A stretch of 64,000 bases of DNA from Romanomermis culicivorax (taxonomy: Eukaryota; Nematoda; Enoplea; Mermithida; Mermithidae). Location of the stretch: positions 372,001 to 436,000 of the forward strand of contig CAWUHX010000084.1 in NCBI GenBank assembly GCA_963922205.1. The letters are read 5' to 3'. The notes under the pieces are model-generated. The model saw nothing but the letters and a program-made list of their open reading frames with translations. It had not been told where the DNA came from and did not search any database. Below are positions 38,194-44,763 of this stretch, piece after piece. Numbering within the stretch: position 1 is the first letter of the stretch; every line of letters starts with the position of its first letter. The position numbers and the translations under genes are program-made.

Positions 38194-41100
38194 TTAAGGG
38201 TCGGGGACCTCTGCGTCAAGATGTGGGTCAATCAAATTCGGTGTAAAGTCCCGGCTTATTGATGGAAACAATAAGGGTGCCGAATCCGTTGCCTGCGAAG
38301 TGGGAGGTGTATCCTCTGCTTCACTCGGTTGTTCAGGGGACACGTAAAGTCGAAGCTGGTTGACATGTATAGTGTCTTCCTGATCCATCTCGAGACGAAG
38401 TGTGACATTGGGATATGCCACACTTGTTACAAGGTAGGGTCCATCGTAGATGGGCAGCAATTTAGGAGTGAGTCCACGTTTGCTGGAGGTGCGCAGTTTG
38501 AGCACCTGATCCCCTACTTTGTACGAGACATCATGTGCCTTTCGGTCGTACGACCGTGCATAGGCCTCCTGTGCTTTCTCAATCCGACTCTGGATTAAGG
38601 TTAACGCATTCGTGAAATGACGTTTGACCTCCATATCATATGAGGAAACATTAATGATATAGGCCAGAGGGTTGAATGAGAGCGCGGCATCAACAGGGAG
38701 CATGGGTGTGCGACCGTACATGAGTTCAAAGGGCGAGTACCCTGTTGACTCATTCATGCTGATATTGACGGCAAACACAGCGTATGGTAGGTGTTCATCC
38801 CAATCGGTATGTCCTTGATGAACATACATACGTAGCCGTGTGGCTAGCGTCTGATTAGCTCTTTCCACCTCGCCGTTGGTCATCGGATGATAGGCGGTAG
38901 AGTGGATTTTCTTCGTTGCGCAGATCGCAGTGATCTCAGTCATCAGTTTTGATGTGAAATCAGTGCCACGATCTGACTGAAGAATCTGCGGTGCCCCGTG
39001 CCGGCAGACAATTTGCGTTACAAACAGCCGGGCTATGGTGTGCGCAGTGATGTCCGGAGTAGCAAAAGCCTCGACCCATTTCGTAAAGTAGTCGATGAAG
39101 ACTACGATTAAATGGTTGCCAGCTTTGCTAGTGGTCATTGGTCCCATACAGTCGACACCTACCCGATGAAACGGTCCCGTGATGGTGATAGGTTTCAGGG
39201 TCGCAGTGGTTTTCTGTCGAGCGGGCTTATTCTGTTGGCAAAGATCACACCGCTGACAGAAGGACTTGACATCCCGACTGAGGGAAGGCCAGTGGTATCT
39301 GCGAGCAATGAGCCGCGCAGTACGTTTAGCACCAAAGTGTCTAGCTAAGATGTCATCATGATGAGCCCGGATAATGGTAGTAACCATGGATCTGGGTATG
39401 ACAATCTTATTGGACTCGCCTGTCCATTTCTGAAGAACGTTATCCAACAGATGGTAGCCTCCCACATCATTCTGGTCGCCCAGAGGCTTAAGGAAGCGAA
39501 TGATGTCGGCTAACTCCGGATCCTCCAGCTGAGCAGCGAAAAGGTCGGGGTGCTGTGCACCAACCGATATCTCGGCATAGGACTCTGATCGTACCAGGCG
39601 CTCCGCCCCAACAGTGATCGGTGCTGAATTACTTGAACGCGCCAGGTGCTGCACACCATCGGTCAAGGTTCTTGATCTCGCCAGGTGCTGCGCACCATTG
39701 GTGATCACCATAACATGCCCCTCAGGTCTGTAAAGGGGAGTATCATCAATACTCTGACCGGTGAGGGAGTTAGGATCCGGCAGGCGTGATAATGCATCAG
39801 CATTACCATTAGACTGACCTTTTCGCGGCCGAATTGTCAGTTTGAATTCGGCGAGCGCGAGTCCCCACCGAGCGATCCGAGCAGAGGGGTTAGGCTTCTC
39901 CAACACTGCTTTGACCGCGGTATGGTCAGTCTGAACGACCACCTCGTGCTGGAAGAGGTATGGTCGAAAGTGCTTGACGAAATGGACAACAGCGAGAGTT
40001 TCCAGTTCTGTAATGGAATAGTTTTTCTCGGCTGCTGTTAACCCTCGGCTGGCGTACGCGACAGGATGGTCGTATCCATGTTCGTCTAACTGGCTGAGAA
40101 CCGCTCCTATCCCCGAAATACTTGCATCAGTTTGAAGGATAAAGGATTTCGAAAAGTTCGGATGGCGCAGGATAGGAGGGTTGGTCAGCAGGCGGCGGAG
40201 TTCATCGAACGCCTCCTGCTGAGGTTTTGACCACTGGAAAGTAGTTTCCTTCCGTAAGAGCTTGGTGAGTGGCTCGCTGAGCCGGGCACAACCAGGGATG
40301 AAACGCTTGTAGTAAGACACGAGGCCTAGGAAGGACTTGATGTCTTTGGCATTTTGTGGAATGGGTAGGTTTTGGACGGCGGCCAGCTTGGCTTGGTCAG
40401 GTTCTAGGCCGCTCTGTGAGATGCGATAGCCTAGGTACTCTACCTCTGAGTGCGAGAATTTGCACTTGCTCAGTCTGAGCTTCATTCCACCCCGGCGAAG
40501 ACGGGCGAACACATCTGCCAGGCGCTCAAGCATTTGGGTGTGAGAGTTCCCGAACACCAAAATGTCGTCGAGATAGGTTAGAACCGTGCGCCATTGGATT
40601 CCAGTAAGGAGGAGGTCCATAAGGCGTTGAAATGTCCCTGGTGCGTTGCATAAACCGAAAGGCAAATAATTGAATTCGTAAAGTCCAATAGGCGTATTAA
40701 ATGGCGTCTTTTCTTTATCCGCCTCCGCAATCGGGATTGACCAATAAGCGTTAGCCTGGTCAAGGGTAGTGAAGTACTTCATACCCTTGAGTGTGTCGAG
40801 AATGTCATCTATCCGTGGGAGAGGGTAGACATCCTTTTTCGTGACCTCGTTAAGACTGCGAAAGTCAACACACATACGGTGAGTACCGTTTTTCTTGCGC
40901 ACCAGGACAGTATTAGTAGCCCACGGAGACATGCTCGGCCGAATAATACCTTTTTCCTGGAGCGCCTTGACCTCCTGCATGATGAGATCCTTTTCCTTAG
41001 GTGAGGACCGGTAAGGGAAACGGCGGACTGGGCGGGCATCGCCCGTGCTGATTTCGTGCTGGACGAGATCAGTGGAACCTGTGTCCTTTTCATCAAGAGC

Positions 41101-44100: not shown

Positions 44101-44763
44101 GTGATAATGACACCGTGCCGTGAAGTTTTGTGCTGGCCAGACAATGACCCCGTCTAGAGTAGTGCACTGGCCTGCAGTGGGACTGCATCCACCTACATCG
44201 CCTAAGGTGCTTAGGGCCGTAGTGCTGTCCCACGAAGCGACTTGTCCCTCCTCGATGAAGATGTTAGTCACTGTCTTGCAGACGTCGCTGCAGCACCATT
44301 CGTACATCACTTCCAATGTTTGGTTTGTGCTATAAAAGCCAGGGCGAATGCCGACAAGTTTTTGTGAACCAAACATCTTAGTGCGATGTGCTAGCGTGCA
44401 TGCCGCAGGCGCTAAGTGCTGAGTGGTAATGACGTCTGCAGTGATGCCCCTAGAGCCGAAGAAACCGGTGTTGGTGCAGACTTTGCGGGAGCGCAATGTG
44501 CATTTCCACACTGTGGTTGTAATCGGGTCTGAGCTAGGGACATACACTGTAACATTCATGCGCCATGGGCTCCATGAAGATTGCGGTGGTTTACACTCTA
44601 CACGCTGGGGTAACTCAAGTGGATGTCCGCTTCTTGAGAGACCGCAAAATTGATACTGAGCCGCCCCTGCTGACAAACTCACCCCTAGAAACAGTGATGC
44701 TACCAAGGTCAATTTTATTATCAAAAACAACTGTACAAACGTAATTTGTAAGTGTTCACTCAT
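38194..44763 (-). CDS. Env-like glycoprotein fused to Pol (two retropepsins, RT, RNase H, integrase)
   Basis: 2,189 residues from ATG 44763. A signal peptide (about 1-36, hydrophobic, ending SAGA) leads a Cys-rich ectodomain with N-glycosylation sites and segments such as YEWCCSDVC and FTGDALTIWPCQKV. A transmembrane helix follows near 551-584. The tail has a first retropepsin (FLDTGCPRTIIS near 641-652, LILGLDFL), a Ser/Arg-rich linker and a second retropepsin (LVDTGAVFSLL near 976, LVLGTNFL). Then come RT (YLDDILVF near 1397), RNase H (LQTDAS near 1546), and integrase with HHCC, D (1871), D (1931), E (1967, DX35E) and a GPY/F-type end. The glycoprotein resembles those of chuvirus-like mononegaviruses captured by some retroelements, a family call by pattern only. 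The frame stays open upstream to 45,627, but that part looks out-of-frame. Confidence 0.88.
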   Translation of the reverse strand: MSEHLQITFVQLFLIIKLTLVASLFLGVSLSAGAAQYQFCGLSRSGHPLELPQRVECKPPQSSWSPWRMNVTVYVPSSDPITTTVWKCTLRSRKVCTNTGFFGSRGITADVITTQHLAPAACTLAHRTKMFGSQKLVGIRPGFYSTNQTLEVMYEWCCSDVCKTVTNIFIEEGQVASWDSTTALSTLGDVGGCSPTAGQCTTLDGVIVWPAQNFTARCHYHPKGNYTASMSGNHVIIDDLQVALKIPGNSRVFQLCPELRSTTVRTDQGLLLRIHGRYNLTQNLFRMAKDTCPDPVNAKLNYLAQQIKESEINGFRFTWLELCSQAQRYLDLTWQLLRFDPTLGARAFLQRNDLTAEFTGDALTIWPCQKVNATYVYHSYRVGNVCYKYLPVQVGGTIYFATPGGPDLIKSSPIVPCHHHFTGIFRNRSGWFTESGAVHVSHIPLELFWKQRFNITHFEAPALFHDQLAMTPSNFAFFKQYVYKTEQIEAVLNRLVNFTPGLSLQPDAIYQAFAGVGTDIKASLEGVGLAANHVITGQQHTLAQGLHAVLSRPVQLIFNILITLTVLIGVGYLAYLGVSYYLSYRLRSKQVRFVSRFSPLGLYRKVQRWIGFHYVQNDVPSQLDRITPCFVMLLDTKETPAFLDTGCPRTIISQRLHKALAKESPKAVMGFQQHHDFNPLMSINGKAMHTILSGPYEIMLPGNRQPNTRIDIHLHVCKTTSPFWAPVDLILGLDFLEQFKNIMFDYQRNVCRLDTVELPLLLTTPEIDQIDPWWENTRALSRNSHRSGSRSRSRASSISRPHSRASSVASSRGSTRGSRASSRRASRHLSTLHRSGCPRPPPGNSPVTLEKGRYPEPSDSDAPASPVPNAPPLSDTEIESLGATQSPRDHSDHVLTVQDESTLLNDPEPSVGYALVGLLRRTGLPIPKRSGKTKHTSGATTPDSGHVVSAFYPNDIRTPHIKVLLNNWVEAKALVDTGAVFSLLDHKLAAQLPNLSLSPTRARPIAANGSPIPLLGAAYTTVTVADVSERIQVQIQENCSAELVLGTNFLGQFNCVSLNWEKSFLQFKESRIPCDGLIHSPPSAHGALPLKDLVILEPRSLTRFTVPVPPIYTNVPEVAFFPKHLTGSQRHIYFAGSVSSVTNGHIPLQVVNPNTHSVVLYPHMTIGHVQMHSEPSRESPVDSDTVLDRQWVEANAVISPDIYPRDRAALLDLLVAYTDLYALDEKDTGSTDLVQHEISTGDARPVRRFPYRSSPKEKDLIMQEVKALQEKGIIRPSMSPWATNTVLVRKKNGTHRMCVDFRSLNEVTKKDVYPLPRIDDILDTLKGMKYFTTLDQANAYWSIPIAEADKEKTPFNTPIGLYEFNYLPFGLCNAPGTFQRLMDLLLTGIQWRTVLTYLDDILVFGNSHTQMLERLADVFARLRRGGMKLRLSKCKFSHSEVEYLGYRISQSGLEPDQAKLAAVQNLPIPQNAKDIKSFLGLVSYYKRFIPGCARLSEPLTKLLRKETTFQWSKPQQEAFDELRRLLTNPPILRHPNFSKSFILQTDASISGIGAVLSQLDEHGYDHPVAYASRGLTAAEKNYSITELETLAVVHFVKHFRPYLFQHEVVVQTDHTAVKAVLEKPNPSARIARWGLALAEFKLTIRPRKGQSNGNADALSRLPDPNSLTGQSIDDTPLYRPEGHVMVITNGAQHLARSRTLTDGVQHLARSSNSAPITVGAERLVRSESYAEISVGAQHPDLFAAQLEDPELADIIRFLKPLGDQNDVGGYHLLDNVLQKWTGESNKIVIPRSMVTTIIRAHHDDILARHFGAKRTARLIARRYHWPSLSRDVKSFCQRCDLCQQNKPARQKTTATLKPITITGPFHRVGVDCMGPMTTSKAGNHLIVVFIDYFTKWVEAFATPDITAHTIARLFVTQIVCRHGAPQILQSDRGTDFTSKLMTEITAICATKKIHSTAYHPMTNGEVERANQTLATRLRMYVHQGHTDWDEHLPYAVFAVNISMNESTGYSPFELMYGRTPMLPVDAALSFNPLAYIINVSSYDMEVKRHFTNALTLIQSRIEKAQEAYARSYDRKAHDVSYKVGDQVLKLRTSSKRGLTPKLLPIYDGPYLVTSVAYPNVTLRLEMDQEDTIHVNQLRLYVSPEQPSEAEDTPPTSQATDSAPLLFPSISRDFTPNLIDPHLDAEVPDP

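What the first reader, a model, noticed from the sequence alone, without database searches (positions are those of the whole stretch)
38194..44763. gag - env - pol order: env-like glycoprotein fused to the N-terminus of Pol
Retroviruses and errantivirus-like elements place env after pol. Here one open frame encodes signal peptide, Cys-rich ectodomain, transmembrane helix, then protease, RT, RNase H and integrase. As drawn, Pol would be the cytoplasmic tail of a type I membrane protein and be released by its own protease. The same order and fusion occur in the diverged element 2 (52,861-60,872), so it is not a one-off rearrangement.
Basis: partly seen in the sequence, partly recalled or inferred. 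Interest (0 to 1): 0.9.

Follow-up and report, generated by a model that had tools for sequence, protein, structure and literature searches.

The report
Retroelement with envelope inside polyprotein
A family of virus-like jumping elements carries its envelope-type glycoprotein in the middle of one long reading frame, between the capsid part and the enzymes, instead of as a separate gene at the end as in retroviruses.

Summary
The order is real, but the window shows a damaged copy. Element 1 (minus strand, 36,235-47,061) is a Ty3/gypsy-type LTR element whose frame reads signal peptide, Cys-rich ectodomain, TM helix, protease-like domain, second protease, RT, RNase H, integrase. The ectodomain matches Pfam Monjiviricetes_fusion (E 4.9e-14). 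The host genome (359 Mb, unnamed) gave 115 hits to the env piece; 54 of the 115 lie in one frame of 3,084-3,116 codons, which in the relatives read holds Gag, Env and Pol. The window copy lacks ~5.4 kb (LTR end, primer site, leader, Gag capsid). What looks like gag there is mostly a second, overlapping 263-codon frame (X) under purifying selection. Element 2 and a database protein (P0007) share env-before-pol, and the three fall in one RT clade. Best reading: Env is made as an internal, membrane-threaded part of Gag-Env-Pol. A spliced Env-Pol mRNA is a serious rival. New variant of a known kind; sequence evidence only.

The parts
45655..47061 (-). 5' LTR of element 1, cut off short of its 3' end; TSD ATAT at 47,062-47,065
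   Evidence: 98.3% identical to the 3' LTR; ends read against full copies
45654..45655 (-). Deletion junction: LTR end, primer site, leader and Gag capsid/zinc knuckles missing (~5.4 kb, measured against copy C112)
46142..46149 (-). Splice-donor-like AGGTGAGT in the LTR
   Evidence: read; present in 20 of 20 fetched 3' LTRs
44792..45583 (-). X: 263-codon frame overlapping the gag-env linker, -1 relative to gag/env
   Evidence: selection in this frame, polymorphism 28/71/26
44779..44795 (-). Splice-acceptor-like CTGACACTGCCCCTCAG just before env
   Evidence: exact in 40 of 41 copies
43042..44763 (-). Env: signal peptide, Cys-rich ectodomain, TM helix (43,042-43,098); PF24664 match at 43,444-43,878
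   Evidence: 16 cysteines invariant in three proteins
42463..42915 (-). PR1: first protease-like domain with DTG, followed by an RS-rich linker
   Evidence: weak: PF13975 E 0.22, DDI1 E 0.0087, codon-position signal 4/4/7; motif by eye
41608..41877 (-). PR2: retropepsin
   Evidence: PF13975 E 2.4e-7
40420..40902 (-). Reverse transcriptase
   Evidence: PF00078 E 2.5e-34; Ty3 RT best solved relative
39844..40233 (-). RNase H
   Evidence: PF17919 E 2.7e-33, PF17917
38884..39399 (-). Integrase: H2C2 and core
   Evidence: PF17921 E 1.1e-20, PF00665 E 6.3e-9; Ty3 best solved relative
36235..37677 (-). 3' LTR; TSD ATAT at 36,231-36,234
49961..50944 (+). Element 2, 5' LTR (aligned part)
   Evidence: 93.7% identical to 61,014-61,997
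51325..52772 (+). Element 2 gag, in two overlapping frames
   Evidence: PF03732 E 1.1e-6, PF19259 E 1.3e-6 in 51,325-52,002
52807..55014 (+). Element 2 env in two frames (to 53,469 and from 53,749), the second running into a protease
   Evidence: PF24664 E 1.4e-10; PF13975 E 0.0043, below cutoff; TM helix
58449..60872 (+). Element 2 RT, RNase H and integrase, in broken frames, after a nested insertion
61014..61997 (+). Element 2, 3' LTR

Best explanation
A young Ty3/gypsy-type LTR retroelement family that carries a glycoprotein of the Monjiviricetes fusion family between gag and pol, all in one frame of about 3,100 codons in full copies. Most likely unspliced RNA is translated as Gag-linker-Env-Pol: Gag stays in the cytosol, the internal signal peptide sends the Env ectodomain into the ER, the TM helix with its basic flank anchors it, and Pol stays cytosolic, to be freed by PR1/PR2. 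That is the membrane-threaded logic of alphavirus and flavivirus polyproteins (recalled) in a retroelement. A second frame, X, overlaps the linker and is probably made by splicing or a -1 frameshift as Gag-X. Shown: order, single frame, selection on gag, env and X, RT clade. Inferred: translation mode, topology, cleavage, any role in particles.
For: 54 of 115 env hits lie in one frame of 3,084-3,116 codons. In the 20 relatives read the frame runs from before the capsid into env, and the capsid is a Ty3 type. Codon-position signal in gag (32/32/85), env (21/10/60) and PR2 (5/3/18). The linker stays open in the gag/env frame in 14 of 17 in-frame copies that were not picked for long frames; synonymous shuffling of X leaves it open in 0.3-2.3% of shuffles and simulated divergence in 5-10% for the four deepest pairs. 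32 of 41 copies lack an ATG at the env start while the signal peptide is kept. The LTR donor joined to the env acceptor puts TAG in frame before env (my reading), and donor-like sites in gag are out of phase with env. P0007 is an independent Env-PR-RT-RH protein.
Against: No RNA or protein data. A perfect donor in 20 of 20 3' LTRs and a conserved acceptor-like sequence before env look made for splicing. The linker shows no amino-acid constraint in the gag/env frame. Shallow pairs say nothing on openness (P 0.39 and 0.64), and all copies share ancestry. The copies were picked for long frames. Element 2, though decayed, has a stop between gag and env, and lacks X. A 1:1 Gag:Pol ratio would be unusual.
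Confidence: 0.5

Rival explanations
1. Env-Pol is made from a spliced subgenomic RNA (donor in the LTR or elsewhere upstream, acceptor just before env), as foamy viruses make Pol from a spliced RNA (recalled); the open frame back into Gag is incidental.
For: AGGTGAGT in 20 of 20 3' LTRs and CTGACACTGCCCCTCAG before env in 40 of 41 copies; 9 of 41 copies, the window's included, do have an ATG 15 nt past the acceptor.
Against: 32 of 41 copies have TTG or TTC there; the next Met in the window copy (residue 69) lies past the signal peptide (read); the LTR donor joins in frame to a TAG. Non-AUG starts or other donors are not excluded.
Confidence: 0.3
2. The order is a secondary rearrangement of a canonical gag-pol-env element that then spread; nothing special in expression.
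For: Known env-bearing LTR elements whose layout is given in passages read have env after pol. Canonically ordered sisters could not be searched, the genome search being unanswered.
Against: The order is shared by element 1, element 2 and P0007, which differ by 36-47% in the RT stretches compared and form one clade, so it is not recent.
Confidence: 0.1
3. The glycoprotein no longer serves as an envelope but as a membrane anchor for Gag-Pol inside the cell.
For: High copy number in one genome and no RXXR motif in the env+PR1 piece; no virus was seen.
Against: 16 cysteines invariant across three diverged proteins and constraint over the ectodomain.
Confidence: 0.2

Closest known systems
Ty3/gypsy LTR retrotransposons (Metaviridae), including errantiviruses
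   Same: Ty3 is the best solved relative of RT (6.6e-82) and integrase (3e-37); Ty3-type capsid; 4-bp TSD in two copies
   Different: env between gag and pol, in frame with both; errantivirus env follows pol as a separate ORF (recalled)
Anakin, BEL/Pao elements with a chuvirus glycoprotein (PMC7642597: abstract, one section, passages)
   Same: An LTR element with a glycoprotein of the chuvirus kind
   Different: BEL/Pao, not Ty3/gypsy; where its glycoprotein sits was not stated in the text I saw (figures not held)
TelKA of bdelloid rotifers (PMC5408684: passages)
   Same: LTR element with an env from negative-strand RNA viruses
   Different: Paramyxovirus F type, as ORF3 after pol
Lokiretroviruses (PMC9040795: passages)
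   Same: Env similar to Mononegavirales fusion glycoproteins
   Different: Dual RNase H, retrovirus side of the tree; gene order not stated in the passages seen
Foamy virus Pol; alphavirus and flavivirus polyproteins (recalled, analogy only)
   Same: Pol apart from Gag by splicing (rival); cytosolic and luminal parts in one membrane-threaded polyprotein (best reading)
   Different: Neither joins Env to the N-terminus of Pol; no common descent claimed

Membership tests
Ty3/gypsy LTR retroelement | Pol order PR-RT-RH-IN with Ty3-type RT and integrase | tested here: met
Ty3/gypsy LTR retroelement | RT phylogeny inside named Metaviridae | not tested
   Tree holds database hits, few with names, and no reference set
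Ty3/gypsy LTR retroelement | Two LTRs and short TSD | tested here: met
   Window copy (ATAT) and two full copies (AAAT, CTGT), of three examined
Errantivirus / env-bearing LTR element | env downstream of pol | tested here: not met
   env lies before pol; the ~0.5 kb between pol stop and 3' LTR shows no ORF of 150 aa or more
Monjiviricetes fusion glycoprotein (Pfam PF24664) | Profile match above curated cutoff | tested here: met
   51.7 and 40.3 bits against 27, over profile positions 311-460 of 653 only
Monjiviricetes fusion glycoprotein (Pfam PF24664) | Relatives among viruses | tested here: inconclusive
   Protein searches found only P0007 and P0008, no named virus; none confirmed in viral contigs; no solved structure
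Monjiviricetes fusion glycoprotein (Pfam PF24664) | Fusion-protein fold | tested here: inconclusive
   AlphaFold2 failed, pLDDT 33.7
Troyka | CG..CG LTR ends and 3-bp TSD | tested here: not met
   TG..CA ends and 4-bp TSD; definition from PMC12440569, parts 1-2 of 5
Enveloped retrovirus | Enveloped particles that enter cells | not testable with these tools
   sequence data only

The most novel reading that the evidence does not exclude
A lineage of LTR retroelements present in more than one source expresses itself through a single membrane-threaded Gag-Env-Pol polyprotein with an internal signal peptide and an overprinted accessory gene: a way of carrying an envelope that needs no separate env mRNA and puts Pol on the cytosolic face of the Env membrane.
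Probability: 0.4. Interest if true: 0.9.

Novelty: new variant of a known kind. Interest (0 to 1): 0.75.

Why it matters
In the passages read that state a position, env of LTR elements follows pol. A Gag-Env-Pol frame would tie the glycoprotein one to one to the enzymes and could package Pol through Env rather than through Gag. It also looks like a Ty3/gypsy capture of a chuvirus-type glycoprotein, which a survey of arthropod genomes reported no clear evidence for (PMC10084718, passages). With 54 long-frame copies among 115 hits in one genome, the expression question can be settled with ordinary RNA and protein data.

Tried and rejected
Chance or a one-off rearrangement: rejected by copy number, codon signal and P0007. 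Intact gag in the window copy: rejected. Own env ATG as the general start: rejected. A canonical -1 slippery heptamer at the gag/X switch: looked for by eye only, none seen. PR1 as a copy of PR2: 19 aligned residues, E 0.003, undecided. X in Pfam or among solved structures: nothing. Troyka: rejected. Env fold: failed. Viral contigs: nothing confirmed. An early impression that the leader is hypervariable was wrong: the four pairs compared are 90-100% identical per 250-nt block. P0017, P0018 and P0029 join the RT clade, but their upstream DNA was not read. Host identity and in-genome families near element 2 were not searched, because the tool did not complete.

Papers: PMC12440569 parts 1-2 of 5; PMC7642597 abstract, section 18 and passages; PMC10084718, PMC5408684, PMC9040795 and PMC8672886 passages; all others search listings. 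Searches for the order; two searches returned no paper, and no title or abstract start that I saw in the others describes it. The library lacks preprints and most subscription papers.
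Full report
What is in the window. Element 1 lies on the minus strand between LTRs at 45,655-47,061 and 36,235-37,677 (98.3% identical over 1,407 nt; ends and the ATAT duplication). Its frame (38,194-45,627) carries, from about residue 289, a signal peptide, a Cys-rich ectodomain with 17 Cys and 9 sequons, one TM helix with a basic flank, a first protease-like domain, an RS-rich linker, a second protease, RT, RNase H and integrase. The ectodomain matches PF24664 at E 4.9e-14. RT and integrase are nearest to Ty3 among solved proteins.

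Element 2 (plus strand, about 49.96-62.0 kb) has gag (PF03732 E 1.1e-6), then env (PF24664 E 1.4e-10) running without a stop into a protease (PF13975 E 0.0043, below cutoff), then RT, RNase H and integrase in pieces. It is older (LTRs 93.7% identical) and broken by stops and by an insertion between 55,015 and 56,932 whose ends are 74-nt direct repeats.

More copies. The host genome (359 Mb, 595 contigs, unnamed) gave 115 hits to the env piece at 97-100% identity; these were the only 115 scored of 3,391 candidates, so the number is a lower bound. Counting the rows, 54 of 115 lie in one open frame of 3,084-3,116 codons; the window's copy has 2,498.

Why the window copy is shorter. In 20 of 20 relatives fetched, the stretch homologous to the window's LTR-env interval begins 4.76-4.83 kb into a piece in which the LTR does not occur. 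In the two traced further, the 5' LTR (1,429 and 1,440 nt) lies about 0.5 kb further up and is followed at once by TGGCGAGG..., a primer-binding-like site. In these two the LTRs are 98.7% and 99.2% identical, with 4-bp duplications AAAT and CTGT. The long frame opens at L009 2,955; its first 638 codons hold a Ty3-type capsid (PF19259 E 1.6e-7) and, by eye, zinc knuckles. Against copy C112 the window copy lacks about 5.4 kb, so it is not autonomous.

Which frames are used. All 20 relatives were picked for frames of 3,092-3,116 codons. Polymorphic sites across them, by codon position of the gag/env frame, are 32/32/85 in gag and 28/71/26 in the overlap (L009 4,868-5,656). The overlap is thus under selection in the -1 frame, X. 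The change falls near L009 4,889-4,906, with a few sites out of pattern. Rough dN/dS of X is 0.19-0.32 in six pairs; X has a stop in 2 of the 20. Env sites in 8 copies fall 21/10/60, PR2 5/3/18, PR1 only 4/4/7.

Is the linker kept open? A further 20 copies were picked because their long frame is broken somewhere (under 2,900 codons); with the window copy that makes 21. Four of these are out of frame in the overlap and were left out; of the other 17, 3 have a stop in the gag/env frame and 3 in X, while the third frame has 3-9 stops in each. Shuffling synonymous X codons leaves the gag/env frame open in 0.3-2.3% of shuffles across 20 haplotypes. Simulated divergence leaves it open in 5-10% for the four deepest pairs and 39% and 64% for the two shallow ones. 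The copies share ancestry, so these are not independent. I take this as moderate evidence that the frame is kept open.

Where Env starts. Met is found at the env start in 9 of 41 copies, Leu (TTG) in 27 and Phe (TTC) in 5; the signal peptide is otherwise kept. AGGTGAGT is in 20 of 20 3' LTRs, and CTGACACTGCCCCTCAG stands before env in 40 of 41 copies, with one C-to-T change in the other. Joining the two puts TAG in frame before env (my reading). Donor-like sites conserved in gag are out of phase with env and, by coordinates, in phase with X if joined to acceptor-like sites at L009 4,892 or 4,922. This favours a Gag-Env-Pol polyprotein with splicing possibly serving X; it does not exclude other donors or non-AUG starts.

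Relatives. The env part of a 1,301-aa piece found one protein among 5,593 candidates: P0007 (1,424 aa, 38% identity over 89%, E 1.2e-126), with Env, protease, RT and RNase H together. Env alone found one among 6,930: P0008 (536 aa, 36%). No named virus was found, so the viral origin of Env rests on the Pfam profile, over about a quarter of its length. By eye P0007 and element 2 have one protease each, so the first one seems peculiar to element 1. FastTree on two RT stretches taken apart (113 and 120 sequences, midpoint root) groups element 1, element 2, P0007 and P0017 at 0.981, and the same with P0018 and P0029 at 0.972; branching inside is weak. The sequences are the best 120 of 2,482 hits plus these elements, less those covering under 90%.

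How it most likely works. Shown: order, frame, selection, clade, recent copying (similar LTRs; no rate was applied, so no age). Inferred: unspliced RNA yields Gag-linker-Env-Pol; the internal signal peptide is cleaved and Env crosses the ER membrane once; Pol is cytosolic and freed by the adjacent proteases; Gag-X is made by splicing or a frameshift.

Known or new. Envelope capture by LTR elements is well known. [quoted passage not shown]) and in bdelloid elements (PMC5408684); PMC10084718 reports no clear capture of such a glycoprotein by Gypsy. Phrase searches for the order returned no paper in a library without preprints and most subscription journals. I file it as a new variant of a known kind: Ty3/gypsy-like by pol, LTR and gag, but failing the feature that env follows pol.

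Noticed in passing
window 42,463-42,915 and 41,608-41,877: Two protease-like domains in tandem in element 1, the first right behind the Env TM helix and an RS-rich linker between them; weak evidence for the first.
   Followed up: partly
L009 4,868-5,656 and homologous stretches: X, the overlapping frame, is among the most diverged parts of the internal region (90-94% in places, against 97-100% for most gag blocks) and by eye is absent from element 2; no Pfam or PDB relative.
   Followed up: partly
window 57,917-58,258: Stretch between protease and RT of element 2 matches a herpesvirus dUTPase-like profile (PF04797, E 8.4e-6, just below cutoff).
   Followed up: no
window 55,015-56,932: Insertion inside element 2 flanked by 74-nt direct repeats (93%), holding an antisense gag-like piece.
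   Followed up: no
window 27,725-28,546: Uninterrupted 273-codon protein-tyrosine phosphatase (PF00102, E 1.1e-62).
   Followed up: no
window 11,232-12,146: Integrase-core ORF on the minus strand (PF00665, E 3.7e-13), part of another mobile element.
   Followed up: no
window 33,966-34,179: 17-nt tandem repeats around GGGCGCCAAAGTGAGA.
   Followed up: no
window 1,625-1,969: Two tRNA-Tyr genes called with anticodon ATA, close together.
   Followed up: no
G000 C128 and C336: Pairs of long-frame copies 16-20 kb apart on one contig, same strand.
   Followed up: no
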